From: Pleurostoma richardsiae
Lineage: Eukaryota; Ascomycota; Sordariomycetes; Calosphaeriales; Pleurostomataceae
Reading direction: 5' to 3'
NCBI GenBank assembly: GCA_030052745.1
Contig: JANBVO010000014.1
Span: 558,001 to 622,000 of the forward strand
Length of the DNA: 64,000 bases
Positions 2,001-47,586 of the stretch are shown one piece after another. Position numbers and translations under genes: made by a program. Each line of letters opens with the position of its first letter. Position 1 is the stretch's first letter. The notes under the pieces were generated by a model. The model had not been told where the DNA came from, did not search any database, and was given only the letters and a program-made list of their open reading frames with translations.

Positions 2001-2107
2001 CTTGATCTTTCTGAAGAGACAACCAGGGAAATTAGGGAGCAATCGTGACCGGCAGTCACGGTATGACGCGCAGAGAGCAGTTCAAGTCCCAGTTCACCGG
2101 ATGCGTG

Positions 2108-2140
2108 CTTATCGTCGTGGGTGGGGGGTGGACTGATAAG
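2108..2140. promoter_or_regulatory. Pair of GATA-factor sites upstream of allantoinase
   Basis: CTTATC at 2108-2113 and GATAAG at 2135-2140 are cores of the HGATAR site bound by AreA/NIT2-type GATA factors. They face each other about 108 and 135 bases upstream of the allantoinase ATG at 2000. Paired GATA sites are typical of nitrogen-catabolite-regulated fungal promoters. Function is inferred from motif and position only. Confidence 0.55.
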
Positions 2141-2639
2141 GAGGTGATCACGGCGGAGGGACGCGGAGGGTTGGCGGGGAAGAAGGGTAGAAGGGCAGAC
2201 ACTGCAGCCGGCGAACACGCCTGAGGGTTTATTGTGTCGAGGACTCGAAGTGTGATACGGAAAAGCAGAAAGGAAAGAAGGAAGAAAGAATAGCTCAACC
2301 GAGAAGAAAGAAGCCGAAGGGAACGGCTCGCCTTACCAACAAGGAGATCCACCTACAGCCGAAGGGGCCAGTCCATCCCTCCACCGCCTCGGCCGGGCTT
2401 GGGACCTGGCCGTACGGCAATGACCTGACTCTGCGTGCTCGCTGCGGGCAGGCGTTCCGGCGCGAGAGAAAGGGCCTCTTTTGGTGACAAATTTGGTGCG
2501 AAAGAGCCAAGCCTGTGGGGTGGGTGCAGCCGTCCGCTCGTTATCAACGGGGGCGGCGCGCCTCTGTGTGTGTCTCTCTCTTTTGCGCTGAATCAGACGG
2601 GGACCCTGAAAAGGCTCGTGTCTCCTTTATCGCAGCGCC

Positions 2640-2736
2640 CTGATTGGCCCGTCGGATCCTGGCGCATCCCGATCCTCTCACCCCTCCCTCCGGCGCGCTG
2701 GGACGACCCCTCCGCCTCGGCCGAGCCGCCAATCAG
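2640..2736. promoter_or_regulatory. Inverted pair of CCAAT boxes
   Basis: CTGATTGGC at 2640-2648 and GCCAATCAG at 2728-2736 are perfect 9-base reverse complements, each with a CCAAT core and flanks preferred by the HAP/CBC complex. They lie 640-740 bases upstream of the allantoinase ATG, in a C+T-rich stretch that looks like promoter DNA. The gene they serve is uncertain. Confidence 0.35.
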
Positions 2737-3184
2737 CGCCCGGAATTGGCCTGAGGGTGGGCCTCCGCCGGCGCTGTCAGAGAGGGCCGACTTGTTCCGC
2801 TGTCGGACGCCATCTGATGCTATTTTCGCAATTTGGGAGTTTTGATCGAGTAACTATCAGGTAAACCTTAGCAACCGCCGTCCCTGAGTCGCCTAGCGCT
2901 GCTATAGGCTGCAACTCGCTTCGGGTTTGCCCGTGACGGCCGGGTAGAAGAGGTGCTCCTACTCGTTGTTCTTCAAGCACCGTGAAACGTATCATCGTCT
3001 TCTGACCTGCTGTTATAATACGTGTAAACTATGCAGACAAACTCCTGTAGCTATAATCGACATGCCGGCGACGACTTGCTCGACACTAGCAAGCATCCCC
3101 GGCACACATGGCGAAGAAGTTCTGTGAGGAAAGCACGAACAAGTGATATATCCCTTCATCTTATGCCCGTATCCTTGGCGTCAA

Positions 3185-5748
3185 CTATTCCTCTGCTGCA
3201 AACCCGCGGTGCCTTGAAACCGCTTGTACGCGGTCAACGAGATTCTCTGGCGGAGCGTAGTCATGTGTCGACGTGACAGCCATCTGGCTGTGACGGCGCC
3301 TCCGATCCTCCTCATAAAAGTAGCCGAGATCTATACCTGCTTTCTCCAAAGCCCTCTCCCAAACGTCAAGGCAATCGAACATATTGAAGCAATCTGTGAT
3401 GCTAATACCGTCGTAAACCCTCTCAAATATGTCGACTCCATGGCGAATAAGTCTGACAAGACAAGTTTCAAGCCATGCTTTGTTCTTACAAGAAAAATAC
3501 TGAGTATTGAAACGGACCATGTTCAAAATGCTATCCCCTGCCTCGTCCCTAAAATTAGCTGGGAGGATACCGCTGCGAAATAGTAATTCGAGATAAAGGA
3601 CGTGCAGCCGTCCAGTTGACTCCAGAGGTATCAAGAGACTTATCAAGCGATTCATATATTTCGTGAAATCAGTGATGTCTCTGACGAGTTGGACGCAAGT
3701 CATGGGCCATGCAAGAAAGCTGTCCAGGTCATCCTCCTGGCATTCGGGGCTTAGCAACGTTCGCATTTGTGTTATGGCTCTCTGAGGCACTTACGGCGGT
3801 CGTCAACGGAACGTTGAGCCTGATCCAGGATTTCAACATTCGAAACATTGCCAAAACAGCAATCTCACAAATACTCGCACCGTCGGACAGGCCAGCTAAG
3901 TACCGTATTAGCTGCATCTGCGTTTGAGGGTATACAGGGCCCGTTCCGAGGCTGGCAACTTCATAATTCCAGAGTTCGAGATTTGCAAGTGCATGGTCTA
4001 AAGGTGTACAGGAGTAGCTTTCGGATACGCCGGTCAGCCATGATACCGTACGCGGGTGGGATATGACTTAGATCTGATTACCTACTCGTCTTGTATGGAT
4101 AGGTCCGCGCCGCAGAAGATTAAGGTTTTGCAGCAATCCCCTTCTCCGGCAATAGCAGCCCACTAAACATAGTTGAGTATGGAATCAAAGTGTTAGGAAA
4201 GTATAGCAGCGGTAACTTACATGGAGAGGGGTCCAGCCATATTCATTGCGATCAAATGGGGAAACGCCGCCAGAGTCCAGCATCTCCCGTAACACTTCCA
4301 CCTGCCCATTGTTGAGACAGTCCCAAACAGGGTGATCCTCCGACAGTATCGCGAATGGCCGCAACGAAGGGTTGATCACAGGATAACCCCTAGGGTCGAG
4401 CCGATGCTCATAACTGATATAAATACCGGTTGACAAAAGGCGGCGGCAAGGGATTAGTGTCGCTTTGGCCTTGAAAACCTTCTTCGTACGCCCTTCGAAG
4501 TGACGGGATGACTCAATCGTAAGAGTAATCGACCCAGCCCTAGTGCATTTTCTCCACGTTCTTGACCCTAAAGATACCACAGCTGGTCCTCGATCACTTT
4601 CTAGTTTGGGAGCTTGTAGTGCTTGGTCATCGTGCGTGGCACTGTGGGTGGCATCGCTGCCTGTCCGTCCTTCTGATGTATTGTCAGTATTTTCAAAGTC
4701 TACACGCCGCCGGATGCCCCCGAACGTGTCGGCATGTGACTCCGCGTTGGGGACAACCGGAACTTCGTTGCCGGCGTAGTTCAGCTGCGTCCTAAGAAAC
4801 ACCTGTAAGGACTCCAACTCCTCTCTAACTGTACCTCGAACATCTTTGGACACCTCTTCGAGGAGTGCAGTTACATGAGTCTGCAGGGCCGGCTCGAAGA
4901 GCTGGAAAAAATTGCGTTGGAACTCCTGAACTGATTCGACATGCTGGACGCATTGAGCGTTGAAGTTCGCATTGTCGACTTTGATAGATGCTATTACTTC
5001 GTTAAGACTCGAATACTGTTGGTGAGAGGAGTCCGCGCTAGCAGCAAGCTTGGTTCGTACTGATTGCACCTCGTCACGTGTGTCCTGCAGAGTCTGTCGC
5101 TGTGTCTCCTGCAGGTTCGCGATGCTGGCATCAACATGGTTGGCGAAGTCTCGCAGCTGAGGTCCTAAATCCAGGGCTTGGGACAGACGAAGCTCTAGAG
5201 CCTCGATATCTGCTCTGGTTGCGGAGTTCTTGGCCGTTTCACGTAAAGGCATAAGCATTCTAATCTGTAGTTCATCGCGATAGTACTGGAGCCTTTTCGC
5301 CAACTCATCGATCTCGTTCCCTCTCCATGAAGCCTTAAGTGCTGCCTTTACACGCTTCGTGGTCGTTGTAGAGGATCCCGATTGCAATGCTACCGACTCG
5401 AGCTTATCGATGATCTTGCTAGCAAGGGAAGCGCAACTATCAGCTATGTCAAGAAAGTCCTAGATATTCTATTAGCGTTGGAAGTTGTAAGAAACAGGGG
5501 ATTCAAGGGCGCAATCTCACCGAGCTCTCCGAGGGCAATGCACCATTTTGGCAGACCGCCGATCTGTTGGACTGGACTAAATCCTGAACGATGGTCCTTA
5601 GGTCCCGCGCCAGCCTCAGATAATCGACGTTCACATCCGTGTTTGAGTTGCTCCGCAGCTCTTTAAGGTTGCGGACGAGCTTCCCGCCGAAGTCAACGAA
5701 TTGAACAATACTGGAGGCCAACCCCACAGCCACTGCAGCCTCCATCAT
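3185..5748 (-). CDS. STAND-type N-terminal domain protein with ankyrin repeats
   Basis: Five exons (5748-5521, 5459-4221, 4162-4086, 4017-3795, 3736-3185) join in phase through introns of 58-68 bases and give 772 residues. The N-terminus (MEAAVAVGLASSIVQF) is the fungal helical domain found at the front of many STAND/NLR and ankyrin proteins, with a second part (FLDIADSCASLASKII) in exon 2. Residues about 100-290 are helical and coiled-coil-like with many Gln, Glu and Leu. Around residue 484 an ankyrin unit starts (GWTPLH followed by WAAIAGEGDCCKTLIFCGAD) and runs across two splice junctions into TPLDHALANL. The last 180 residues are helical with no recognised domain. No P-loop was seen, so this is not a full STAND protein. 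The role is unknown; relatives act in self/non-self or stress signalling. An alternative ATG lies at 5745. Confidence 0.82.
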
Positions 5749-6481
5749 CACGTCTAAAGCATGTAGGCGATACTGTAGCCGCAAGACGTGGAAGTGTGAA
5801 GACTCGAGAGAAAAGGGTGGTTGGACTCGATCAGGCTGGGAACAGCGTTATGTCTTACCCTGGGTAATGGGTAAGCTGCATATAAATATTCCTCCTTATT
5901 GGATCGTACTGCACCATCCACGACGCGGTGTTGCCTGAGGTATTTACAATTCAGACTTGTTCATTGAGCATTGTACCTCTCACTATGCCTTGTTGCCTTT
6001 GGCACTGTAGTGCGGATCCTCCACAACTCATCAAGGAGGTGTTGAGCAACGTCGTTTGCATTTAAGACGTCGTAGACATATATCAATAATACAGTGTTAA
6101 TAGTGATAAAAGACGGGGTGAAGAGCAATGCCCTCTTCATATCTTTAGGTCCCTCTAACAGTGGACTGCTTCTTGGCCGTCGACGTGTTTGTGGCGCTGC
6201 CAAGGACAGAAACGAGGCAGACTCCGGACCGCACTGCGAGGCACAATCGTCACCCGATCAATGCATTTCATAGCTTGCTAGCAAAGAAAATGCCTACGAG
6301 AGAGGGCAACAAAACGAGTCAAATGGCTTATCTCTGATTCAACGGGGATTCTATTGGCTCAGAACTGCTTCACTGCACAATCATGGGATTATGCAACTTC
6401 CACCCCTAAGTAGAGAAAACGTACGGATTCACACCGCTTGCCCTTTGGAAGAATGGCTTGGCTCTCTTCCAACATGTAGGC
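5749..6481. other. Intergenic, upstream of the ankyrin gene
   Basis: Both neighbours are on the minus strand, so this is the ankyrin-gene promoter plus the 5' end side of the transporter terminator. An AT-rich TATAAATATT at 5881-5890, about 135 bases upstream of the start, could serve as a TATA element. An 80-codon minus frame at 5961-6203 has no supporting similarity. Nothing else was recognised. Confidence 0.45.
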
Positions 6482-8266
6482 TCAAACCAAGTACCTGAAT
6501 CCCTTGCCCGCAACACCCGCTTGTCCTGCGTTTTCCGCTTCCTGCTCTTCCCTCTCGAGCTTTTTGTTTTCCAGTTTCAGAACAAAATGCAGTACGGTGC
6601 TGGCCAAGATAGCCATCAGAGCCATACCGGCATTCACAGAAAATGCGAGAACAAAGCGTGGACTGGCGTTGCTCGGATATAGGTAGGAGCCATAGATGCT
6701 GCAAAGGGTCGAGAAGGCGTTGTTGAATGCCACCGCAGCGGCTCGCTTACCCGGAGGCCGGTAGATTGTATTGGCGGTCCACACCATAGACATGTTGAAC
6801 CCCGTGTAAATTCCTGGGAGCATGATCATGGCTCCAAAGTAGCGTGGGCCAATACCCTCGGCAGCACAGGCAATGATGAAGCCCACAAGCGATGCTGCCA
6901 GCGGTCCCACGGTATGCCAGTAGCGTTCATTTGTGCGATCTGCGTTCCAGGAAACCAGACCACACACGATGCATGCAAGCAGATACGGCGGAGAAGTAAG
7001 CAGCAGTGTCTCCGTGTTGCTGCGCCCAAAGCTCTCGACCACGGTCGGGAAGAAGCTGTTGATGGAAATTGACGATGCGGCACCGTAAACAATTACGACG
7101 AGGATCCAGTTCTTCGGGTCCTTCATGAGCTGCTTGAACCCGTCGAAGAGCGACTGTGACGACGACGAGACCCAGTCCTCCTCGCCGGCGGCGTCACGCT
7201 CTAGGCGATACATCGCCATCTGCCTCTCCTGGTCTGTTAGCCACTTCGTGGTGGCAGGGAAGTCGGGCAGGATGAAGAAGGCCGCCATAGCAATAGCCAC
7301 TGTTATTGAGCCCTCGATAATGAAGAGCCAGCGCCACGGGCGAAAGCCAGCAGCGCCATCCATGCCGCTGTTGATGCCCGCAGCGATCAACCCCGAGAAG
7401 GCGCCAGAAAGCATGGAGCCGCAGTAGAACAGGCCAGTTCGTATGCTGAGCTCCTTGCGGACATACCATGCACTCAGGGTTGCAAGACATCCTATTTCCC
7501 TCATTAGCCAGTAGGCTTGGTTTGTCAAGGGTAGTCCGTCCACATACCTGGATAGAAGGCGGCTTCGACGAAACCAAGGAAAAATCGAGTGGCTAGGAGC
7601 CCTCCATAACTCTGTGCTGCACCGCTACAGGCACATAATACGCCCTTATATCTGTCGTCAGCTTGTATTCTTAAGCACGTCCTTCGACGACGTCTAAGCA
7701 GAGTTGTTGCTCACCCAGATCCCCATACATATGGTCAGATACATAGACGGCTTTCCGATCTTGTTGAGGAACATGTTCGAGGGAACCTGCATCAGGATAT
7801 ACCCGACGAATAAGATCGATACGCATGTCTGCACTCATACTATGTGTTAGCCCATCATGCCCAGTAGAATGATTCAATTTTATGCTTCTCGTCTCAATCC
7901 TTACCTGAAACTGATTCGCTCCCAGTCCTAGATCATCCTCGAGACCTCCGAGCCGCGCTGCACCGATAGCATTCCTTCCCCCAGGGTCAGCTTGATGGCT
8001 GGTAGCGGCTATACAGACCAAGGCTATGCTTACCTGTCGAGGTAGTTCATGATATAGATAATGATAAGAGTCGGCAGAAGACGCAAGTCGATTTTGCGGC
8101 GAAGCCTTTTCTCACAGGCATCCAACTCCTCAGGCGAAAGGTCTCGCAGCAGAGGCGGAAGTTCCCGGATCACGACATTCGAAACATGTCCTTCATCAAC
8201 CGACTTGTGATCCGGAATATTGCTCTGTTCTTGATTTAGGCCGCTCATTTTGATGTCGGCCGCCAT
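6482..8266 (-). CDS. MFS transporter, allantoate permease / ACS family
   Basis: Five exons (8266-8034, 7974-7905, 7828-7715, 7644-7548, 7491-6482) join in phase to give 507 residues, the usual size of the anion:cation symporter family (Dal5, Tna1 and relatives). Family landmarks are visible: a charged cytosolic N-terminus ending in RLRRKIDLRLLP, the first membrane segment with IMNYLDR, then QVPSNMFLNKIG, the SYGGLLATRFFLGFVEA segment, and the WRWLFIIEG loop between helices 6 and 7. Members import organic anions such as allantoate, nicotinate, ureidosuccinate or pantothenate; the substrate cannot be read from sequence. It lies next to a stand-alone allantoinase region and is divergent from an FAD amine oxidase. 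The ATG at 8266 is chosen because the frame upstream offers only a TTG. Confidence 0.92.
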
Positions 8267-30129: not shown

Positions 30130-31857
30130 CTATCCTGCTAGAAAGTCTCCAACAGGAGCAAAGGCACCATGCCAAATAAAAGATGCAAACAATGGATCCC
30201 AGTCGGAGAGACTCAGATCCACGTCGCCCAAGTCGACGTCTTCTTGGCTGGGAGTATGCCATACGTTTGCGGTCCACGCCTTTGAGCGAAGCGCCTCGAG
30301 CTTCTCCCATATCGGGTCGGCCTCTTTGAAAAATGTGGAAAAGCACGACTCCACGACGCTGCGCAAGTCGGACGACTCCAGGCTGCCGGCGTGCTGTATG
30401 AGGTCTTGGAGAAGGATGGCACAGGCATGGAAGATGTTGAAGTGGTTGAGGATCCAGCGAAACGGGGCGAAAGGCGGCTCTGACGCCCCAACAGTGAAAG
30501 CGTTGATGTAGTTCTTGCAAGCGTCCAGTGCCTTGCTCCGAGAGCTTTGCGGCCATTGTGCTGAGCGTAGGTATGGTTGATGCAAGACAAACTTCAACTT
30601 CCACAAGCAGCAATTCAGGCTGATGGCGATGAACCGCTCGACTGCACTCAGGTCTGGTGAGTCCACCACTTGCAGCTCACTTGCGCAAAGCTTCTCAACC
30701 TCCTCGCCAAGCCTTTGAAGCACATCTCTAGTAGGCTGCCGGACTCCATAAATATCTTCAAAGACTTTGCAGAGCGTAACGTTAACAAGAGTGATGGTTC
30801 TGAGCATCCTCCGATCTGGTCGTCCTTCGCTCGAGATCATCTGGACGTCAGAGTTAGTCGGGTGCGTTAGAGTCGGCAGGGCGTGAGCCAAAGAGTAACC
30901 GACATCCAAGGCCTGGACCGACCACCATAGCACACGACAAAGATCGGCGTCGTCGGACGATAAGTGCAAGGTCAGTGGCTCGCGGTGAAGACCGAGAAAC
31001 TGTGCTGCACGTACAAGCACACATATCGGCGCTGGGTTTGTGTGGGACGGGAACTCTGTCATATTCCGTAAGGCGAGGAGAAAAGCTGCTCGAAGCGAGT
31101 TGGGGTTCGGGCGCGAAGGGTATCCCGACTTGGCGAGAAACCCCTGTGCTAGATCTCTCCAAGCCGAGGATGCAAGGCTGAAGGCGCTGGTGTCGCGGGA
31201 GGCCTCGGCGGAGCAAGATGCGATGTAACAGACGGCAGCAATCAGAGCCGCCGAGCCAGATGCAGAAGGTCTGTGGTTTCGCAGGTTCTCGAGAGATGCC
31301 ACAGTTTCGGAGAGGTCGACAATTGGGTACCAGAAATGACAGAAGTCTGAGTACCAGCGAATAAGTCTGTCAACTTCGCCGAACGAGACGACACGATCGA
31401 TCTGCTCTGTGGGTATCTCAGCTTCGCCCCGAGCGTCTAGTCCTAGGGACCATCTGGGGCCCGGACTCGCTACTTCTTCCGCCGTCGAGGATGACGCTTG
31501 CTCCCAATCTTCAAGGGCACTGACCCAGGATGCACTTGAATAATACCGAATCTGGTTATTCGTGCTGGACGTCAGATGGCCGACCTGATTTGGCCATATA
31601 TTCTGATTACCAGCATTAGACGGCAATGTCGTAAGGTGCTCAGGTCCGATTTGAGTGTCCTTAGTTGTGTTTCTCTTCGCCCGTTCGAGTTCCTTGGGGG
31701 GTTTAGCCGCGTAGAGACATGGCCGATTATGCTCTAGGCATCTTTGGCACTGAGGCTTCTCCCGACCACATCTTATCTTTCTTATTCGGCACTGTTGGCA
31801 GGCTCGGACCTCTCGCTCTCGTGGAAGCCTTGGGCGGTTTAGGTTGATGCGCTGCAT
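30130..31857 (-). CDS. Zn2Cys6 transcription factor
   Basis: Single exon of 575 residues. The N-terminal cluster ACQQCRIRKIRCGREKPQCQ plus RCLEHNRPC has the canonical C-x2-C-x6-C-x5-C-x2-C-x6-C spacing and is preceded by basic residues. The fungal-specific regulatory domain follows from about residue 160: VDRLIRWYSDFCHFWYPIVD, then LRAAFLLALRNMTEF, then LGLHREPLTLHLSSDDADLC and RVLWWSVQALDVGYSLA. It is convergent with the F-box-like gene and divergent from the broken transporter region. The target is unknown. The intact transporter it might once have controlled could be the adjacent pseudogene, but this is speculation. Confidence 0.92.
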   Translation of the reverse strand: MQRINLNRPRLPREREVRACQQCRIRKIRCGREKPQCQRCLEHNRPCLYAAKPPKELERAKRNTTKDTQIGPEHLTTLPSNAGNQNIWPNQVGHLTSSTNNQIRYYSSASWVSALEDWEQASSSTAEEVASPGPRWSLGLDARGEAEIPTEQIDRVVSFGEVDRLIRWYSDFCHFWYPIVDLSETVASLENLRNHRPSASGSAALIAAVCYIASCSAEASRDTSAFSLASSAWRDLAQGFLAKSGYPSRPNPNSLRAAFLLALRNMTEFPSHTNPAPICVLVRAAQFLGLHREPLTLHLSSDDADLCRVLWWSVQALDVGYSLAHALPTLTHPTNSDVQMISSEGRPDRRMLRTITLVNVTLCKVFEDIYGVRQPTRDVLQRLGEEVEKLCASELQVVDSPDLSAVERFIAISLNCCLWKLKFVLHQPYLRSAQWPQSSRSKALDACKNYINAFTVGASEPPFAPFRWILNHFNIFHACAILLQDLIQHAGSLESSDLRSVVESCFSTFFKEADPIWEKLEALRSKAWTANVWHTPSQEDVDLGDVDLSLSDWDPLFASFIWHGAFAPVGDFLAG

Positions 31858-33120
31858 GCTGAGTGGACTAGACGGTATGCTCGCTCTACGTCACGCTTCG
31901 GGCTTCGTACTATACCATATAAGACTTTACTGGCACCATCCAAGCCTCGAAGCTAGCTCGGTACAGTGGATAACTCCGGCATGCATTTTCGGAATCCGAC
32001 AGAGCTCTGTGTGTGACTCAACTGACGTGACAAAGCAGAGTGATGAGTGCAGCTCATGGCGAAGTTTCGTATGAGATCACAAGAGGCGAAATATCCGGCC
32101 GAAAGACTTGACTCTTTGGGCAATATATGTGGGCACAAACCGACACGCTTGACCATACGCAGCAAGGCGCGCCGGTAATCATGCGCCTGGATTGCTTAAA
32201 TGATTAAAACACTGCCTAATTTTGCAGGATAAAGCGTAAAAGATTCCACAGCGGGTTTGGAATCAATGGACGCTAAATTGTCGTCTCAACATCTGGGACG
32301 GCGGTCCATATGAACCATATCAGACCGCAGCCCTGTTTTTCTCTATTTCATTCTTCTTTTCGCTCTGTGATCTAGCCGTTCTGGGAACTTCTTTCGTGCG
32401 GCTCTGGTCTGTTACTCACCATTACGGAGTGCCTTGTGATGATGGAAACACTTCAAAATGGCAACGGTCCCCCGTTGCGAACATAGTGGGACGCCTCTCG
32501 CAAGTGGTGAAGACATTTATCATACTCACGATTACTCTTTATCATGGGTGCGGCGGCCTTTTTCAGGAACGCACCTCCTGCAGCCTGTCCTCGGACCCTG
32601 TCTCGCGGCCGGATCTTGTAACTACCGCCTATAGCTCTCAAGGTTTCTGCTGGGAACTCAACAGGGGTATCTAGCCGACGGTCGAGCGAATAAAAGAAGG
32701 GTGAAGAAGGCCAACCTTCGGACCAGGAGCAAGGGTCGGGTGTTTAGGAAGACGAATACCTTGTTGCCTAGGAAGGGAAGAATGACTCCGAGAATCCAAT
32801 GAATTTGCTGTGGAAAAATCAGGCCCACAAAGGCTCTCCTAGAATCATCTCTTTATCCTTCTTTCTAGCTACTTCCAACGCTTACTAGAATGGGCCCTAG
32901 AGGACCTGAATTCAGGCTTCAGGAAGAAGCTGAGGATATAAGTAGGAGGCTGGGATCCTGTCAAATAGCCCTAGAACTTAGTCCTGTAGACACAATACAC
33001 CTATCCAACCACACTTTCCCCCCTGCGCAGAACTCCTCATTGGATTCTAGGTGAGGGTACTTCTATCCGAACTTCCATATTCTTTCAGGAACACTACTTA
33101 CACGTTATTGACACAACCAG
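31858..33120. other. Intergenic, upstream of the minus-strand regulator, with a stretch of unusual composition
   Basis: No gene could be supported. From about 32690 to 33050 the text differs from its surroundings, with many AGG, AGA, CTA and ATA triplets and purine-rich repeats such as AGGAAG. It could be worn repeat DNA, but no terminal repeats, target duplications or recognisable coding part were found. Confidence 0.35.
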
Positions 33121-35378: not shown

Positions 35379-38300
35379 ATGGCGGCGGCAGTCTATTATA
35401 GCGGTGCTCCTATGGCGCCGGAGCTCACGGACCTCGCAAATCTCTGGAATGGCGCGCTCCAGAAATACCAGGAGGAGAGCGAGACAGAGCTACCGGTGAT
35501 GAACATGAGCATGATTTTGGCCGAGCAGGACCGCCAACTCCTGCTCTTCGGCCAGTTCCGCCACAACAAGGGCAAGCTCGACAAACTTCGGAGCGTGGTG
35601 TCGCGCAATTCGGAGCTGATACAGAGTCTGGCGTCTAACGTTGCGAATGCTGCGAGCACGGCGTTCCCTCCCAGCTCGGCAATCTTAACCGCATTTAACC
35701 TGGTCATGAATGCGTCCAAGGCAGTCTCGGAGGATTACGAGATGATTGTGTCTTTCTTCGACATCATGCATTCATTTCTAGAGCGGATCTCGATGCTGGA
35801 GAAGAAATTGCCTCCGGTAATAGACAAATCCTGCTTTCTGCTATCATGAGAAGATTGAGATGCCAACATGCTTGATAGGAATGGCAATACCAAAACGCGC
35901 TGGTGAACGTGTTTGCGGCGCTTCTCGCCCTCTGCGCTATCGCGCGGAAATACCGCCAGAAGGGTCGCATGATAAAGTGGGCGAAGGCCCTTGTGGATGG
36001 GCAGGATCCCAAACTCAAGGGCGCATTGGGCGCTCTTCATACGCAAATGGAGCGTCTCGAGTCCGCGACCGTGATTGCGACGCTCAAGGTGTCGATTGAG
36101 TCTGGCCAGAAATTAGATAGCATGGGACGAGATATCAAGAGCATCCAGGCTGGCGTCAACCTGTCTCTGGAGCTTGGCCAGCAGAATCTTTCCCTCGGAC
36201 AGCAGAACTACTACCTAGGACTGGAGACTCGCGGTTACGCCAAAGACGCAGCAACTGCTGGCACAGAGATGATCGCCATGATGCATCGCCAAGAGGACGC
36301 CGGTGCCGAGCAGACCGGAAGGCTCAGGAACATCGAGCGCGCGTTGCAGAAGAATTCGAGGGACAAAGGTCCGGTTGACCAGCAGATGGATGCTGGAGCC
36401 AGAAAGTCCGCAGCGCTGAAGCAGGTGCAGAGGCTGCTCTCCTACGACCTGGATGACAAGGCGCAGCTAGGTGATCTCGAGAGCTCCTTTGTAAACGGGA
36501 CATGTGACTGGTTCCGCGGCTCAGACGAATACAACGAGTTCGAGGCGGGTGACATCCCCCTGCTGTGGGTTACGGGGCCCTCTGGAGTCGGCAAATCTAC
36601 ACTCGCATCACGATTGACATCCATTCTACGCGAGGAACTGCAAGGAGAAGCGGGTACTTCGGTCGCCCACTTCTTCTTCAGAGAGGATCTTGAGTCTTTC
36701 AGGTCCGTCGACAGGATGCTGAGATCTTGCGCAGTTCAGATCGCTGTCAACGATATGAAGTACCGGGAGAGCATATTGGCTGACATGCAGCGTGTCCGCG
36801 GCGGCGTCGATACCAGTGATGTGAAAGGGCTCTGGAAACACTTGTTTCAGGGGCGGTTCACGAAGGAGACGAACAGAAGGCTGTTCCTTATTCTGGATGG
36901 AGTTGACGAGGCGGATGTGGGTGTCACTGAGCAGATCATGGAAATCTTCTCGGAGATATCGACTTCGACCGACCTGCAAATCAGAGTAGTATTCACGAGC
37001 AATCCTGACTATTTTGAAAAGGTCGAAAAAGCTGAAAGTCTCAATATCCGACGCTTTGAGATGGATAAGGAGAAGATCAAGCCGGACCTAAAGAAGATTG
37101 CTCTTGCTCGCCTCATGACGTTGAGCAGACTTCGAAAGCTGACGAAGAAGACGAAGCGAAAGATCAAGGACAGGCTCATCAAGCAGGCTGACAGTGAGAT
37201 GACCCACGTTGCGAGTGCCTCCCAGTGTCTAACGGGCTATAGCTATCCGATATCTCGAGCACATGTTGCGGAGATTCAACGCCATCGGGCGAGAGAAGGC
37301 AGTTCTTCGAGAACTAGATAATCTGCCCGCGAACACTAAGGCGCTCTATGAGCTACTCCTTGATGATGCACAGAAGGCCCGCGGTGAAGATGACAAGGAA
37401 GTGCTCCGGAAGCTCTTCGCATGGCTGGCCTACTCCAAGAAGCCTCTTAGTCTCGGCTCCGCCAGCCAGCTGCTTCATTTCATAGCCAAGGATAACAACA
37501 TCAGCATTGACGAGGAACTTGAACATCGTTGTGCAAGGTATACCTAGGACAGTGCGTGAAACAAGGACAGAGCTAACACGGCATACTAGGATCTTACGTC
37601 TGTCTAACGCCGCTCAAGACGGTGATCAAGAGACGGACTCAGATATTGACTCTCAAGAAGACGACAAGAAAACCGATGACGAGGAGGAGTATCCTAATGA
37701 AGACCTGAACGTCCTCCTGGGTTTCCAGGAGCGGGCCGTGCGGAGTTATTTCCGCGAGCCCGACATCAAAGACGGCGGTCTCCGTTCGTGCCCGTCCGTG
37801 GGGAACATGATGATCTTCGAGGTAATGGGTAACATACTCACCGAGGAGAAGAAATCCGACTCGGACGGTCAGTGGAGGCTGTACGACTATGCTGCGAACC
37901 AGTGGCTGCCGCACCTGCTGGAAATCAAACCCGAGGCGCTTACGGAGCCTCAGAAAGCGCGGGTCATAGAAACTCTGTGCAGCATCTTGACAAACAGGTA
38001 AGTTCAGTAGGGAGGGCGCTTCACTCTATGCATGCCCCGCACAATGCTAATCACTGCTGGACCAGGAACGGTGCTCTGAGAACCATTGAAGAGTACTCGG
38101 ATGAGTCGTGGAATAACCCTTCAGTGTTCGGAAACAGTGACGAGTCTCACGAGAAGGCTCTCAAGGCTCTTAAGGACTGGTCCGCAGTTGCGAAAGAGCT
38201 GCCGTCATCCTCGCTCTCTCCATTCACCCTGTCCTGGATCCGGCCCTTTGTCCAGAACCCTAAGACGATCTACATCAAGCTTGCAGACGCCCACGTCAGC

Positions 38301-40502
38301 AATTGGCTGGCCTCGGTAGACATGACTTGGGACGCCTTTTGCGCTATAGCATTTCGCTTCGCGCATCGAGCTCTGGAACTGGGCAAAGACCTGCCGAGCA
38401 TGAAGCAGAATGACGAGCTACGTGCCTATTTTGAGGAAAGGGCCGCGTCCGGCTCGGACGCCTTCACAGAGAAGTCGTTCATGGTTGTGTCGAAAGCGTT
38501 CCTCCATATCGACAAGACGGCGCAGTCTTACAAAAATATCGGCATGGCCTTGAAGTGGGACAATATGGTGGAAGAGGCTCTGAAACAGTTCGAGCTCGGA
38601 CTACGAGTCAGCGACAACGATCGTGACTCGATCCAGCTCTATAGCGAGATGGGGGAAGCGCTGATTCGCCTCGCGAAGGATGCTGAGTTTGAGTCGAAGA
38701 AGCCAGATACCGACGAAGAGCCCGAGACTAAGGAGAGCGACGCTCCCGAAGGAAAGGAAGCAGACAACGCCGCCACCGAAGCCACCAACGGGGAGCTCAA
38801 CGGCACGAAGCCCGACGGCACAAAGCCCGACGGCACAGTGCCTGAGTCCAACACCGAGAAAGAAAAGCCGAAGAAAACAAAAGAGCAATGGGCGCAAGAA
38901 GCGTGCGACATACTCGCCAAAGCTGCTGCCCTGAACCTTACCGTCTCAAAGGCGGAGAATGAAGACAAGGAGGTCCGCAGGGCCGTCATGGACAGCTGGT
39001 CCAACCGCGCCACGGCGGAGTTGCTCCTTGGCAACGCCGAGCACACTGTTGAGTACATCGCGAAGGCCCACGAGGCCAAGACCAAGAGCGAGTACGTGTG
39101 GTGCGACAACATCTTCGAGGTGCTCGCCGAGAAGCAGGAGTGGGCCAAGATGCTGGACCTTCTCCGCCTGCAGGACCACAACGACAAGTGGATCTACCTC
39201 TACGATCACCACGAGCAGGTCCACCGAGCGGCCAAGGCCGCCGGGCAAGCCGACTATGTCATCGAGCTGTACACGCAGTCCGTCACGCAGCGCTACCTCG
39301 GGGTCACGCCGTACCTGTACGCACAGTGGGCCTCCTTCTACCAGAAGGTGCTGGGCGGCGAGCGCATGGCCGAGGCTAAGCCGCTGCTGCACAAGATCAT
39401 GGAGACGTCCGACAGCTCGTCGCTCATCTCGCAGGCGTCCTTCAGCCTCGCCGACATCTTCCTCGAGGAGTTCCGCGCGACGCGCGACCCGGCCCGCAAG
39501 GAGGCCGCGTTCGTCCAGATGCAGGCGCTGGTGCGCCGCATCAAGGAGAGCATGGGCAACGAGTTCGACCCCACGCAGTCGCAGACCACGATCCCCCTGG
39601 CGTTGATGACGCGCCGGCTAAACACGCTCGACTTCCAGCGCGGGCTGGAGGCGACGTTCCGCGGGTGCGTGGAGGCGCTGACGGACGAGGACAGCTGGAA
39701 CGACAGCGTCAGCTTCCGGACGCTGGCCAAGGTCCTGGCGTGCGTGCCCGGGCTGAAGGTCGATGCAGAGATCGCCGCGACGTGTCAGCTGTACATCATC
39801 GACATGGCTAAGTTTGAGAAAGACAATATCACTCCTGGCTCGGCGCCGGCATCTCCGAAGCCGGAGAACAAAGAGTTGGCGGAGGATGGAAGTGAGACGC
39901 ACGAGAAAGACACGGCTGCCGTCAACGGAGCGTCAGATGAACCCGCACATGTCAACGGGACTACTGACGCCGCGGCGGAAGACGAGTCGAAGTGCAAGAC
40001 GGAGACGATCACTAATGGCACATCAGTACAACTTACAAACGGCGACACCAAAGCTGATCTTGCAAATGGGGACAAGAAGCCCGCCGAGAAGGAGGAGCCC
40101 GAGAAGGAGGAGGCCGAGAAGGAGAAGCCAGAGCCGGAAAGCGAGGAAGACCTCGACAACGTCAACGTCTTCCTGTCATGCAACAACTGCAAAAAGGTCG
40201 TTCGGGACTGGCACGACGGCGCCATGTACCTCTGCTACTACTGCACTGAGCTGAACCTGTGCGATAAGTGCTACGAGGAGAAGCTGGAGCGCGAGAGCGG
40301 CAAGCTTCCTCCGGATTGGCGCGTGCTGTGCCCGGCCGGGCACCACCACGTTAAGGCTCCGGTGGCCGGGTGGAAGGGGCTGAAGGGCGGTGTGCTCAAG
40401 TTTGAGGATAAGGAGGTGCCGTTCCAGAACTGGCTGACGGAGCTGAAGGAGAAGAAGTGGGTGGAGGCATGGGATCGGTTCTGGGCTGATGAGATGTGCT
40501 AA
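35379..40502 (+). CDS. NLR-like STAND protein: Goodbye-like domain, P-loop NTPase, TPR-like repeats, ZZ zinc finger
   Basis: Five exons (35379-35816, 35879-37193, 37243-37537, 37590-37997, 38066-40502) give 1630 residues. Residues 15-145 resemble the fungal Goodbye domain (LTDLANLWNGALQKYQEE). A helical linker with repeated LGQQN units follows. The NTPase has Walker A GPSGVGKST at 379-387 and Walker B LFLILDGVDEAD near 481. After it come a winged-helix-like segment (LPANTKALYELLLDDAQ) and an acidic linker. Exon 5 is mostly helical, TPR-like repeats (IGMALKWDNMVEEALKQFEL) broken by low-complexity Lys/Glu/Pro stretches. The C-terminus carries CNNCKKVV, LCYYCTELNLCDKC and a CPAGHHHV end, a ZZ-type zinc finger starting at C1524. 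Fungal STAND proteins act as oligomerising sensors in non-self recognition and cell death; a role here is inferred. Confidence 0.88.
38801..38845 (+). repeat. Three 15-base tandem repeats inside the NLR-like gene
   Basis: Three in-frame units based on CGGCACAAAGCCCGA encode GTKPD, GTKPD and GTVPE. They lie in the acidic linker between helical repeats. The first two units differ by one base, so the array could vary in copy number between strains. Confidence 0.8.
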
Positions 40503-40731: not shown

Positions 40732-42344
40732 TTAGCTCTTCACAACCGCCAGCTTACCCCTCACCGGGACGTTCTCCTGCTTCCCCGTATCCGGGAATCC
40801 CTCGACTTTGACCCCCTTCCGGAACAGCAGCACATGCGTCGAACCCCCGAAGTGGAACATACCCAGTTGGTCCCCCTTCTTCAGGTGCTGGCCCTCTTTG
40901 ACTGTGATCTCGCACGTGCTGACCTCGTCCATGCCAACACCCACAAACGCCATCAGCCCGATGGCTGGATTGTCCGCCTCGATGAAGATCACGGCACGCG
41001 TCGCCAGCGCCGTGAGGTACCCCTGGGCAACGCTGATTCCCCGCGAATCGATGTCGCCGGACCTGTTGCCGGGGTCGCCGATGCCCTCGAACAGCGGCTC
41101 CGAGAAGTAGGTGCCGTCCTCGACGAAGGCGCGGCGCACGGTGCCGGACACGGGGGTGTGCCATCGGTGGTAAGACAGCGCGGACAGAAAGGCCTGGTAG
41201 ACGGTGCCGCCAGTAAACTCGCGCGATAGGGGGTCGTGGCCGAGCATGTCGATGACCGAATAGGGCTGCGCCTTGATGAAGAACTTGTCGCGCAGCTTGA
41301 CGTCGTGCGCGATGTTGAAGACCTTCGACTCGCACGCGTTCGCGATCACGCTGTCATCGTCCGGCGAGGCCACCGGCCGGGCGGTGTCATGGACCTTACG
41401 GGTGAAGAAGTCTGTCGGGAGGTTAGTCGCCGTACGCCAAGCGAATAAAAACCGATCAACAGGGAGCAGGTCTATCCATACCGTCCCAGGACTTGAACCC
41501 GTAGTGTTTCGAGGTCGGATCACAGATAAACATCTCCTCGAACTTGTGGCTGGACTTGTAAGGGGCGTTGGCAACGTGCATGACGTCCTTCAAGCCTGTC
41601 TCGCCAAACCAACCCATCTTGTGATTGCCGAGGACGGCTGCAGATTCAGGTGTCTGGGCGCTGTCAGCAGCACACTCAACCGCACTCTTTTCTGAGGAGA
41701 CGTACCTTCAGGAACTGGCCCCATGTGTTCAAGACCTTCTTCAAGATCCTGTTCACGTCCGGATCCAGGAATGCCGCGTGTCCGCTGCAAAAGCTGTCAG
41801 CAAAGGGATGACATGACCCTCAAAGTCTCCGAAACGCTTCTCACCTAGGAGTCCCCATGGCGTAGTCGAAGATTGCGACCATGGGCACGCCGACCATGCC
41901 GACGTTCTCGGCAGCATCAGACCACTCGGGAGCCCTCGAGAAGACATGGTTAAGGATCTTCAGCATGTGATGATAGTCGCGGACCTGACCGCTGCCGGCT
42001 GGGTCCTTGTTGTAAGGAGGCTTTTTGGGGATCTCATCGAACATCTGAACGAAGTACATGTAGACGCGCGAGTTGCCCTCGATGAACTCCTTAAACTCCT
42101 TCAGCACGGGGATAAGCTCTTTAGGGTTCTCATCGACATGCTTGATGGTGCGCTTCAGCCACTCGCGGTGGATGTTGCTGTCCTCCGGCAGCCATTGCCC
42201 GTGACTGTCTCATGAGTAAGTACGAGTGCTTCTTGCTGGACGATACTAGGAGAAGGGGCATGCAGCTTGCGTGCCGTTGTGATTGACTGCAAGAGAGAAG
42301 CAAGAGAAAAAGCGAATCGCAACATACATGTGACCGTCTCTCAT
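40732..42344 (-). CDS. PsiD-type phosphatidylserine decarboxylase-family protein
   Basis: Five exons (42344-42328, 42204-41845, 41784-41706, 41653-41482, 41411-40732) give 435 residues. The N-terminal domain (WLPEDSNIHREWLKRTIKHV; EFIEGNSRVYMYFVQMFDEI) is the one found with PsiD-like decarboxylases, and the C-terminal domain is the phosphatidylserine decarboxylase fold. The self-cleavage motif is FGGSTHVLLF, with predicted cut before S400, which would leave a pyruvoyl group on a 36-residue alpha chain. A catalytic His is likely in SYHRWHTPVSG. Length and order match PsiD-like amino-acid decarboxylases better than membrane phospholipid enzymes: no membrane segment or mitochondrial signal is seen. 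The substrate may be tryptophan, another aromatic amino acid, or unknown. The first exon is only 17 bases and is the least certain part. Confidence 0.88.
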
Positions 42345-44885: not shown

Positions 44886-45758
44886 TCAGGATGGGCCCTT
44901 TCTTCTTCTTCTCACGTTACTGCTCTCCTCGAGCTTCTCTTTTGAATCCACGGTGATAGCAGCCTTCTCCGAGGCAGCCTCGTCTGCGGGGCCAACCACC
45001 CATGTCTGGACAACTTCTTTGACCTCCTTGAATCCCGTGTCCTTCTTCTTTGCCTCCGAGAGGTGCCATATATATCCCGAGTATATTGCAACTTCTGCAA
45101 TAGCAACGACTAGGCTGCCTCCCATTGTGAGAAAGAGCCTTGCCGGTGTGCTCCACCATCGCGCCAGGATCCACAGCGTCGCCGCGCTCCCAAAAATAGT
45201 GACGAGGAAGTTCAACACCAGCATGAGCTGCCTGTGCACTTCGTTATACGTCACTTCGTCATCTCCGATGTCTGAGGTCTTGGAGGGTTTGTTGACCTCC
45301 GCGAAGGAGTGCGCGAGCGTCGAGGTGGCGGGGAAGCGTCGGGAGGCGGCCTCCGTTGGGGACGGGGGGTTGACCATGCGCTGGTATTGTCGTTCTTCCT
45401 CCTCGCGGCGGAGGCGAGCCATAAGGGCCTTGTACTCGTCGGACTGAACCGTTGTCAATGATACTACCTCAGGAGGGCTGTAGGGGGTTGACCATACGGG
45501 CTCGGGTTTAGGAGGTGGAGGAGGGACGTAGACTCGCGATCCTTGCAGTAGCCGCTCAAGGGTGTACTCAGCATCATGTGCTGCCTTCAGATTCTTCCAC
45601 AAGTCAACGATCTGGCCATGCGATATTGGCCTGCCGACAGCGGCATCATCGAGGGACGGCTCGTCCTCCACGAGCTGTGTCTCCTCTTGCTCCGTTTCCG
45701 TCTCTTTCCGTTTCTTCAGCCCCTCCACAATGGCCACCGTCATTGTAAGAAGCACCAT
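44886..45758 (-). CDS. VMA12: V-ATPase assembly factor Vma12
   Basis: Single exon, 290 residues. The block GSRVYVPPPPPKPEPVWSTP, then EYKALMARLRREEEERQYQR, is the signature of the ER-based V-ATPase assembly factor Vma12/TMEM199 family. Two membrane segments follow (residues about 180-200 and 207-227: LNFLVTIFGSAATLWIL and LFLTMGGSLVVAIAEVAIYS), then a charged, Lys-rich C-terminus. In the ER membrane it helps assemble the V0 sector with Vma21 and Vma22. The start at 45758 (MVLLTMT) fits relatives. It is divergent from the polyprenyl synthase across 406 bases. The gene is a housekeeping one and shows no oddity. Confidence 0.92.
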   Translation of the reverse strand: MVLLTMTVAIVEGLKKRKETETEQEETQLVEDEPSLDDAAVGRPISHGQIVDLWKNLKAAHDAEYTLERLLQGSRVYVPPPPPKPEPVWSTPYSPPEVVSLTTVQSDEYKALMARLRREEEERQYQRMVNPPSPTEAASRRFPATSTLAHSFAEVNKPSKTSDIGDDEVTYNEVHRQLMLVLNFLVTIFGSAATLWILARWWSTPARLFLTMGGSLVVAIAEVAIYSGYIWHLSEAKKKDTGFKEVKEVVQTWVVGPADEAASEKAAITVDSKEKLEESSNVRRRRKGPS

Positions 45759-46164
45759 CGCGACGGTTCCGGCGGCATAGCCACTGTGCAGCTACTGTTA
45801 GAGAAAGGCGCTTTGAATTGTGAATGGGAGGCGAAGAACGCCAGCCTCTTAAGCTCCTTCTAAGCTTCCAGTACCCAGATGTGACAATTGGTGGGGCGCC
45901 ATCGGATGACCGGCTGGCGTCCCACAATTCCAGCTGGCTGTTCCTGATCGAGTGCTGACCCGAACCCTGGAAGAATTCGGAGCAGCTTGACTCGCCGCCA
46001 AAAGTTTTGGAGCCGATCGGCTGAGCCCCATCACGCTTCGCATCCCGTCAGCTCAACGCCCTCAAGCCCGACCACTCCGCTGCCAGAACGACCCTCGATG
46101 CCTCTGTGACGACCGCTGCGACTACTGAGACTCAATTGGCCCTTGCGGAGGAGGATTCGCGGAG
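45759..46164. promoter_or_regulatory. Divergent promoter of VMA12 and COQ1
   Basis: A 406-base gap between two divergent housekeeping genes. The region includes an ATTGG (reverse CCAAT) at about 45888-45892. Function is inferred from arrangement. Confidence 0.5.
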
Positions 46165-47586
46165 ATGCCGCTCCGTCCGGGAGCTTCGATACTGCACGGC
46201 AGCCGTGCGGCCACTCAGACCCTGCCGCGGCGGGCCTGCTCCAAATGCCTATGGACAGAGATGGTTAACGTGAGGATACGGCAGCCCCGGGCGCTGTACC
46301 ATTCGTCGAACCGGCGGTCTTCAGCATGGACTGCAGCTGTCTCAGTGGCTGGGAACATCGTCACAAACGCCATCACTAGAGCGAAGAAGGGCGACATGGC
46401 CATCGACCCATTACGGGTCGTGGCCAAGGAGATGAAGTTCCTGACGGGCAATATCAGAAAACTCCTCGGCTCAGGGCACCCATCTCTCGACCGGGCTGCG
46501 AAATACTACACACAGGCAGAGGGCAAGCACGTCCGCCCCCTGATCGTCCTGCTCATGTCCCGCGCCACGGCCCTCTGCCCCAAGGCGCCGCCTCCCGCCC
46601 AGACACTTCAAGCCTCGGCCGCCGGCATCGACAGCTCCCTCTCACCCATATCTATCCTCCGTGACATCAACCCCTCCGCCAGCGGGCCGCTCGGCTCCCC
46701 CGACTTGGAGCCCGCGCCCGCCGACACCGACATCCTCCCCTCGCAGCGGCGCCTGGCCGAGATCACAGAGCTGATCCACACGGCATCCCTGCTGCACGAC
46801 GACGTGATCGACCACAGCGTGTCGCGGCGCGGCGCTCCATCGGCCAACCTCGAGTTCGGCAACAAGATGGCCGTGCTGGCGGGCGACTTCCTGCTGGGCC
46901 GCGCGTCGGTGGCGCTGGCGCGGCTGCGCAACGCCGAGGTCGTCGAGCTGCTGGCGACGGTGATCGCCAACCTCGTCGAGGGCGAGTTCATGCAGCTCAA
47001 GAACACGGCGCGCGACGAGCGCAACCCGGCCTGGACCGAGGACACTCTCGCCTACTACCTGCAGAAGACGTACCTCAAGACCGCCAGCCTCATCAGCAAG
47101 AGCTGCCGCGCCGCGGCGCTGCTGGGCGGCGCCGACGCGCAGACTGTCGACGCCGCCTACGCTTACGGCAAGAACCTGGGCCTGGCGTTCCAGCTGGTCG
47201 ACGATATGCTGGACTACACGCGCTCCGAGACGGAGCTGGGCAAGCCGGCGGGGGCCGACCTCGAGCTCGGCTTGGCGACGGCGCCGCTGCTCTTCGCCTG
47301 GAAGAGCATGCCTGAGCTGGGGGCGCTGGTGGGGAGAAAGTTCGCTATGGAGGGTGACGTGCAGAGGGTAAGAGAGGCCGTTCAGCAGGTCCTTGCTTGA
47401 GACAATCACTAACAGCATTCATAGGCCCGAGAGCTCGTCCTTCAGAGCAATGGTATCGAGCAGACAAGAGCGCTCGCGCAGGACTACTCCGAGCAGGCGA
47501 TCGCCGCCATCAGCGGCTTCCCCGACAGTGAGGCCAAGGAGGGCCTCATAGAAATGGCCGAGAAGACGATCAAGAGGCGGAAGTAA
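46165..47586 (+). CDS. COQ1: Polyprenyl diphosphate synthase, ubiquinone side chain
   Basis: Two exons (46165-47367, 47425-47586) separated by a 57-base intron give 454 residues. The N-terminus is rich in Arg, Ser and Ala without acids, as for mitochondrial import. Both aspartate-rich motifs of trans-prenyl synthases are present: DDVID at 212-216 (LLHDDVIDHS) and DDMLD at 346-350 (LVDDMLDYT). GKHVRPLIVLLMSRA and NLVEGEFMQLKNT are further conserved blocks. It builds the long isoprenoid tail of ubiquinone in mitochondria. The donor AGG|GTAAGA at 47368 is preferred over a later GTCCTT because it gives the conserved DVQRARELVLQSNGIEQTR. An insert between residues 145 and 195 is Pro/Ser-rich and poorly conserved, as in other fungi. 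Confidence 0.95.

What the first reader, a model, noticed from the sequence alone, without database searches (positions are those of the whole stretch)
35379..40502. NLR-like protein with TPR-like region and C-terminal ZZ zinc finger
The order Goodbye-like domain, P-loop NTPase, winged helix, degenerate TPR-type helices, then a ZZ finger is unusual: fungal STAND proteins mostly end in WD40, ankyrin or TPR repeats. ZZ fingers bind N-terminal histone tails or N-degron-type peptides in other proteins, so the end could be an effector or sensing module. The Walker A and B motifs are intact and all five exons hold phase, so the gene looks functional. This is the best candidate for an undescribed system in the window.
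Basis: partly seen in the sequence, partly recalled or inferred. Interest (0 to 1): 0.75.

Follow-up and report, generated by a model that had tools for sequence, protein, structure and literature searches.

The report
Fungal NLR receptor with zinc-finger end
This is an intact fungal immune-type receptor gene whose end carries a conserved zinc finger that a standard domain database misses; related genes occur in several classes of moulds, and their molecular switch has unusual residues, which makes testable predictions about what they sense and how they fire.

Summary
Window 35379-40502 (+) carries a five-exon gene with GT-AG introns in phase, coding for 1630 aa: Goodbye domain, NACHT-type NTPase, winged helix, TPR-like helices, a disordered acidic linker, and a ZZ-type zinc finger followed by a tryptophan-rich tail. 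The finger scores below Pfam's cut-off (15.3 against 21.4 bits), but a profile of 20 such modules finds ZZ structures in the PDB first; the predicted fold also points to ZZ, weakly.

The gene belongs to a dispersed family. Of 39 relatives recovered, 28 have the eight-ligand Cys/His pattern, in Sordariomycetes, Dothideomycetes, Leotiomycetes and, divergently, Aspergillus/Penicillium. None lists a ZZ in its precomputed Pfam domains. C-terminal ZZ fingers in fungal NLRs are already in print (17 in Sordariales, PMC12258605), so the coarse architecture is not new.

New here are the cryptic family, its conserved ZZ-plus-tail module, and an altered switch: the winged-helix histidine is Glu or Asp in 21 of 21 readable core members (window included), and the sensor-1 arginine is lost in 17 of 22. 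My best model is a tethered ZZ module that reads a conserved N-terminal or linear peptide and releases a Goodbye membrane-active bundle. Ligand and activity are inferred, not shown.

The parts
35379..40502 (+). whole gene, five exons: 35379-35816, 35879-37193, 37243-37537, 37590-37997, 38066-40502; 1630 aa
   Evidence: splicing, phase; relatives align over the full length
35445..35789 (+). Goodbye domain (aa 23-137), putative effector bundle
   Evidence: 58.2 and 53.2 bits, cut-off 24.8
36497..37000 (+). NACHT / NPHP3_N nucleotide-binding domain (aa 353-520)
36575..36601 (+). Walker A, GPSGVGKST (aa 379-387)
   Evidence: sequence; alignment
36884..36910 (+). Walker B, FLILDGVDE (aa 482-490)
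   Evidence: sequence; alignment
36995..37003 (+). sensor-1 position, TSN (aa 519-521); Asn521 where other NLRs of the genome have Arg
   Evidence: controls
37723..37752 (+). winged-helix motif FQERAVRSYF (aa 728-737); Glu730 where other NLRs of the genome have His
   Evidence: controls
38067..39824 (+). TPR-like helical region (aa 820-1405), broken by an acidic disordered insert at 38709-38867 (aa 1034-1086)
   Evidence: AlphaFold model; Foldseek; VIA-align
39819..40145 (+). acidic disordered linker (aa 1404-1512), hardly conserved in sequence
   Evidence: pLDDT under 50; 6-33% identity to core relatives where aligned
40179..40349 (+). ZZ-type zinc finger (aa 1524-1580): likely ligands C1524, C1527, C1542, C1545, C1551, C1554, C1574, H1578 (H1580 not invariant)
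40350..40499 (+). C-terminal tail with GWKGxKxGV, then F-x2-W-L ... W-x3-W-x3-W (aa 1581-1630)
   Evidence: F1605, W1608, W1617 in 20 of 20 modules, W1588, W1621 and W1625 in 19 of 20

Best explanation
An intact NLR (STAND) receptor gene of a conserved, cryptic Pezizomycotina family. Shown: the gene model, its domain order, the conservation of the ZZ-plus-tail module, and the altered sensor-1 and winged-helix residues. Inferred: the ZZ-plus-tail module, on a long disordered acidic tether behind a TPR-like superhelix, is the ligand-reading end. It recognises a conserved linear peptide, most likely a free N-terminus as other ZZ domains do. Ligand binding relieves autoinhibition, the NACHT core oligomerises, and the Goodbye bundle, a relative of the HeLo/MLKL four-helix bundle, acts at membranes and causes cell death or damage signalling. 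Because Glu/Asp replaces the winged-helix His in this family, and most core members also lack the sensor-1 Arg, the switch probably does not use the usual ADP-His lock and ATP-Arg sensing, and may be held off by the C-terminal region instead.
For: Gene and domains. Family: 31 profile hits at E<=1e-20; ZZ ligand pattern in 28 of 39 relatives plus the window. ZZ identity: profile against PDB finds ZZ chains first (Nbr1 3.1e-5, HERC2 1.2e-4, KCMF1 3.1e-4); Foldseek's first 17 rows are all ZZ domains (probability 0.35-0.97, E 0.084 and up). Conservation: in 21 of 21 core relatives of the full alignment the ZZ+tail (27-64% identical to the window) exceeds both helical parts (19-44%) and the C-terminal acidic linker, save that the linker of P0022 is aligned over 2% only. 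Acidic position 1547 is D or E in 19 of 20 modules, and 1549 is D in 14 and N in 2 of 20; by spacing these match p62 D147 and D149, needed for N-terminal Arg binding (PMC6197226, passages). Switch: position 730 is E in 18, D in 3 and a gap in 1 of 22 core members (window included); position 521 is D 10, G 5, R 5, E 1, N 1. Of 30 other NLR loci of this genome, 28 of 28 readable have the sensor-1 Arg and 23 of 23 with a found motif have the His. Goodbye as a HeLo/MLKL relative: PMC9815663 (passages). Roles of the Arg and of the MHD motif: PMC8813719 (passages).
Against: No ligand, expression or cell-death data. At the places of p62 D129, N132 and D149 the window protein has N1525, K1528 and N1549, so a p62-like Arg preference is unlikely. 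The acidic positions may be structural. PMC9815663 calls the functional likeness of Goodbye and HeLo open, because Goodbye has an N-terminal extension. Five of 22 core members keep the sensor-1 Arg, so that change is not uniform. The second Goodbye gene of the genome has Lys there and no His motif was found in it. The ZZ model has mean pLDDT 62.6 and no Foldseek match under E 0.08; a ribosomal chain is second among the VIA-align rows.
Confidence: 0.45

Rival explanations
1. The ZZ-plus-tail module is not the ligand sensor but a regulatory or recruiting part (autoinhibition, dimerisation, or coupling to ubiquitin or autophagy machinery); the TPR-like superhelix senses.
For: C-terminal repeats are described as the ligand-binding or autoinhibitory part of fungal NLRs (PMC4986451, PMC12258605, passages), and here the helical part is less conserved than the ZZ module, as expected of a diversifying sensor. 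The profile's nearest ZZ structures include the autophagy receptor Nbr1 and E3 ligases.
Against: The long disordered tether and the ligand-binding record of ZZ domains favour a peptide reader. The helical divergence was only seen between species, so it does not show diversifying selection.
Confidence: 0.27
2. Integrated decoy: the ZZ copies a host protein that pathogens attack.
For: PMC12258605 describes a kinase domain in Sordariales NLRs as a putative integrated decoy (sections 14 and 20).
Against: No donor was found: the ZZ+tail module finds in the own genome itself, two pieces of a broken relative, and one stretch on C95 that crosses stop codons and looks like chance; the ends of the C65 gene and of an Aspergillus relative find only the C65 gene. 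Two other ZZ proteins of the genome that I read look by eye like an Nbr1-type and an EF-hand-type protein, without this tail; a third was not read. The module with its tail recurs through the family.
Confidence: 0.08
3. A receptor-like protein without an immune role (scaffold or physiological regulator) that no longer switches, because sensor-1 and the winged-helix His are gone.
For: Both switch residues changed in most core members; no near-identical internal repeats of the fast-evolving kind in the gene. A NACHT protein with a secretion role is reported in Penicillium (PMC13311144, abstract start and two passages).
Against: GK[ST] of Walker A is kept in 24 of 24 rows that reach it; Walker B departs from DG-x-DE in four (P0016, P0017, P0018, P0021). 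The gene tree rejects one Sordariomycete clade (p-AU 2.4e-5), so duplication and loss or transfer happened, and a broken relative lies in the same genome, as for turning-over NLRs. Plant TNLs often lack the sensor-1 Arg and work (PMC8813719).
Confidence: 0.2

Closest known systems
ZZ-bearing NLRs of Sordariales (PMC12258605, 2025)
   Same: Fungal NLRs with zinc fingers (17 of them ZZ), in most cases C-terminal; 16 treble-clef fingers lie next to canonical repeats; proposed as sensors.
   Different: Here the finger is below Pfam's cut-off and no relative lists PF00569. Whether any of their 17 belongs to this family is not known: the supplementary tables were not opened. The passages and sections I saw do not mention a W-rich tail or changed switch residues.
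Goodbye-NACHT-TPR STAND proteins of fungi (e.g. Aspergillus flavus 'NACHT and TPR domain protein', P0037)
   Same: Goodbye, NACHT and TPR in one protein, and a divergent ZZ-like end with an F-x2-W tail.
   Different: P0037-P0039 keep the sensor-1 Arg and winged-helix His, and end before the last two tryptophans of the tail.
ZZ domains of p62, HERC2, KCMF1, Nbr1 and plant BIG/PRT1
   Same: Three C-x2-C pairs with an acidic turn between the second and third; profile and, weakly, predicted fold.
   Different: The last ligands are C-x3-H after a 19-residue loop, the following His is Tyr in 5 of 20 modules, and a W-rich tail follows.
HET-S/NWD2 and HeLo/MLKL-like fungal cell-death NLR systems
   Same: NLR with an N-terminal part related to membrane-active four-helix bundles (PMC9815663, passages).
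   Different: The effector bundle is fused in the same protein; no amyloid motif was searched for here; the C-terminus is TPR-like plus ZZ, not WD40 (NWD2's WD40 recalled).

Membership tests
Fungal NLR / STAND receptor | N-terminal effector-type domain | tested here: met
   Goodbye 53.2 bits, cut-off 24.8
Fungal NLR / STAND receptor | NACHT or NB-ARC with Walker A and B | tested here: met
   NPHP3_N 110.4 and NACHT 33.7 bits; motifs
Fungal NLR / STAND receptor | C-terminal repeat superstructure (TPR, ANK, WD40, HEAT) | tested here: inconclusive
Usual fungal NACHT switch | His in the winged-helix motif (as in 23 of 23 NLR loci of this genome with a found motif) | tested here: not met
   Glu730; acidic in 21 of 21 core members with a residue there, window included
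Usual fungal NACHT switch | sensor-1 Arg (as in 28 of 28 readable NLR loci of this genome) | tested here: not met
   Asn521; Arg kept in 5 of 22 core members
ZZ zinc finger (PF00569) | Pfam curated score | tested here: not met
   12.9 and 15.3 bits, cut-off 21.4; 18 of 20 modules, the window's included, match at E<=1, best 1.4e-4
ZZ zinc finger (PF00569) | three C-x2-C pairs | tested here: met
   all six Cys in 20 of 20 modules; the first pair is C-x3-C in the Aspergillus row (input)
ZZ zinc finger (PF00569) | profile relation to solved ZZ domains | tested here: met
   ZZ chains lead the PDB list, best E 3.1e-5
ZZ zinc finger (PF00569) | ZZ fold | tested here: inconclusive
ZZ zinc finger (PF00569) | terminal His pair as last ligands (recalled) | tested here: not met
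   C1574-x3-H1578 conserved; position 1580 is H in 14, Y in 5, D in 1 of 20
N-terminus-reading ZZ domains (p62, HERC2) | acidic pocket | tested here: inconclusive
   E1547 fits p62 D147; N1525, K1528 and N1549 stand at the D129, N132 and D149 places, by spacing with recalled cysteine numbers
N-terminus-reading ZZ domains (p62, HERC2) | binding of N-terminal peptides | not testable with these tools
   needs binding assays
Integrated-decoy NLR | domain resembles a standalone host protein | tested here: inconclusive
   no such gene found in the own genome by single-sequence search; distant donors could be missed

The most novel reading that the evidence does not exclude
A widespread, unannotated class of fungal NLRs senses exposed protein N-termini (protease-made neo-N-termini, degrons or misplaced histone tails) through a tethered ZZ-plus-tail module, and fires without the usual ADP-histidine lock, because its winged-helix His became Glu/Asp and later, in most of the family, its sensor-1 Arg was lost. 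It would be a fungal N-terminus-reading damage or protease sensor with a rewired NLR switch.
Probability: 0.25. Interest if true: 0.78.

Novelty: new variant of a known kind. Interest (0 to 1): 0.45.

Why it matters
Ligands of fungal NLRs are almost entirely unknown (general knowledge). A conserved module of a kind with a known binding chemistry gives a concrete place to look for one. The family also suggests that Pfam-based surveys can undercount ZZ-ended NLRs, and that an NLR lineage has kept Walker motifs while changing residues that sense ADP and ATP in other NLRs, a natural test of how general the switch model is.

Tried and rejected
Rejected: a chance cysteine cluster (ligand spacing nearly fixed in 28 of 39 relatives). 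Rejected: a broken gene. Rejected as chance: the ZZ-like match on C95 (L026), which crosses stop codons and overlaps a long ORF in another frame. Weak Pfam matches HTH_66, KAP and DUF7708 are below cut-off and were not followed. No near-identical repeats of the fast-exchanging kind in the gene; the repeats listed are short and diverged.

Limits: the two C-terminal protein searches found few relatives (9 of 7988 candidates scored; 3 of 40). The whole-protein profile search listed 31 at E<=1e-20 of 7989 scored; weaker or unscored relatives are not seen. Of the 39 relatives, 8 end before the C-terminal module (P0024, P0026, P0027, P0032-P0036), 2 end inside the finger (P0008, P0009) and P0031 has a degenerate finger without tail; these 11 are not counted as carriers. 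P0002 has the finger but its predicted protein departs from the tail. 7 of the 39 have no precomputed Pfam domain at all. The full alignment used 25 rows (24 of 39 relatives plus the window), the first tree 31 rows, the second 19. The Sordariomycete group of the clade test was set after the first tree had been seen, and the window's class is itself inferred from that tree. Of 83 NACHT matches in the genome, 30 of the better-scoring loci were read as controls: L047 gave no row, L039 was not readable at sensor-1, a winged-helix motif was found in 23, and frames were read past stops; Arg and His were counted by eye from that output. The control pattern allowed other residues in place of His. The profile of the module also scores an Nbr1-like protein of the genome (22.9 bits, four ZZ stretches) above the C65 gene (17.9 bits), so that score alone shows ZZ, not the tail; the C65 alignment does run through the tail. 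In one search my pattern for the tail was wrong and returned nothing; tail counts come. One search was a needless promoter scan. Literature: the lists shown were parts of larger hit sets (25 of 71; 15 of 51; 10 of 282).
Full report
What is there. Five exons with GT-AG introns give a 1630-residue protein. Pfam places Goodbye at 23-137 and an NPHP3_N/NACHT domain at 353-520, both above cut-off; TPR and ZZ are below cut-off. Walker A and B are intact.

The family. Protein searches found 39 relatives. 28 of 39 carry the eight-ligand pattern, 25 of them with spacing close to 14-5-19 and three Aspergillus/Penicillium proteins with 12-5-13. None of the 39 lists PF00569 among its precomputed Pfam domains. 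Named carriers include Neoarthrinium, Lomentospora, Cephalotrichum, Fusarium decemcellulare, Thozetella, Diaporthe, Microdochium, Parastagonospora, Plenodomus, Neofusicoccum, Phialocephala and Cadophora. Classes looked up: Sordariomycetes (Diaporthe, Lomentospora, Neoarthrinium), Dothideomycetes (Parastagonospora), Leotiomycetes (Phialocephala); the classes of the other genera are recalled. The gene tree puts the window next to Neoarthrinium moseri (96/95; 94/95) and rejects a single Sordariomycete clade (p-AU 2.4e-5), because Diaporthe groups with Pleosporales; duplication and loss or transfer are both possible.

In the same genome. PF24883 has 83 matches. Goodbye matches two genes, this one and one on C65. 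The C65 gene also ends in a divergent ZZ-like finger and F-x2-W tail (17.9 bits against at most 4.6 for 200 shuffles, though an Nbr1-like protein of the genome scores 22.9), lacking one of the eight ligands by eye, and it resembles the Aspergillus end (E 1.2e-5). A third, broken relative lies on C126 at about 639571-642538 (-), with stop codons, no detected Goodbye or NACHT part, and the motif FQDR.

The switch. In 30 other NLR loci of the genome, 28 of 28 readable ones have Arg at sensor-1 and 23 of 23 with a found winged-helix motif have His. The C65 Goodbye gene has Lys at sensor-1 and no His motif was found in it. In the ZZ family the His position is Glu in 18, Asp in 3 and a gap in 1 of 22 core members (window included); sensor-1 is Asp 10, Gly 5, Arg 5, Glu 1, Asn 1. 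The three Aspergillus/Penicillium relatives keep both. PMC8813719 (passages) says the Arg contacts the ATP gamma-phosphate, that the MHD motif is needed for ADP binding and its mutation causes effector-independent cell death, and that plant TNLs often lack the Arg. The fungal His as equivalent of the MHD His is my inference from the motif position; PMC12258605 (section 11) gives an H-containing consensus for the NAIP-like third domain.

How it may work. Goodbye shares a four-helix core with HeLo and MLKL but has an N-terminal extension, and its function is open (PMC9815663, passages). Fungal NLRs are described as tripartite receptors (PMC4986451, passages). In all 21 core relatives of the full alignment the ZZ+tail is more like the window's than either helical part is; Goodbye and the region behind the NACHT are the parts that match or exceed it in most. 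This suggests a conserved ligand or partner rather than a fast-changing pathogen molecule. Residue E1547 and position 1549 match by spacing p62 residues needed for N-terminal Arg binding (PMC6197226, passages; p62 cysteine numbering recalled), but N1525, K1528 and N1549 argue against the same side-chain preference. Peptide reading and membrane action remain inferences.

What is known. PMC12258605 lists 17 ZZ fingers among 4613 Sordariales NLRs and proposes zinc fingers as sensors. Its supplements were not opened. Searches, judged from their listings and from passages of PMC12258605, PMC9815663, PMC4986451 and PMC13311144, showed no paper on this family; search 21 (NACHT with ZZ-type zinc finger) and one search (fungal NLR with MHD motif or sensor 1) returned no paper. 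Most subscription papers are not in that library.

Verdict. A real, intact gene, correctly read by the first stage. Its coarse architecture is published; the cryptic family, the tail and the altered switch residues are what I would call a new variant of a known kind.

Noticed in passing
L027 (G000 C65:152000-161000), ORFs 3597-6065 and 6082-8127 (+): Second Goodbye gene of the genome, also ending in a divergent ZZ-like finger and F-x2-W tail; Lys at sensor-1.
   Followed up: partly
L025 (G000 C126:637500-646500), about 2072-5039 (-): Broken relative of the window gene with several stop codons and no detected Goodbye/NACHT part.
   Followed up: partly
L025 5770-7488 (+): ORF head-to-head with the broken relative that by eye looks like an alpha/beta hydrolase (SesB-like); no profile was run.
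   Followed up: no
L002 (G000 C49:1346024-1346128 and flanks): ORF with several ZZ fingers and an Nbr1-like part by eye, probably an autophagy receptor.
   Followed up: no
window 40732-41589 (-): Phosphatidylserine decarboxylase ORF about 230 bases downstream, convergent with the NLR gene.
   Followed up: no
window 30130-31890 (-), 44886-45791 (-), 46129-47400 (+): Zn2Cys6 transcription factor, Vma12 and polyprenyl synthetase ORFs around the gene; one search listed no other NPHP3_N match inside the window.
   Followed up: no
P0020, P0025, P0027: Neofusicoccum and Botryosphaeria family members carry the database name 'glyoxalase bleomycin resistance protein dioxygenase', which does not fit their domains.
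   Followed up: no
gene tree: Diaporthe proteins group with Pleosporales, and Fusarium decemcellulare lies inside a Cephalotrichum group: duplication/loss or transfer.
   Followed up: partly
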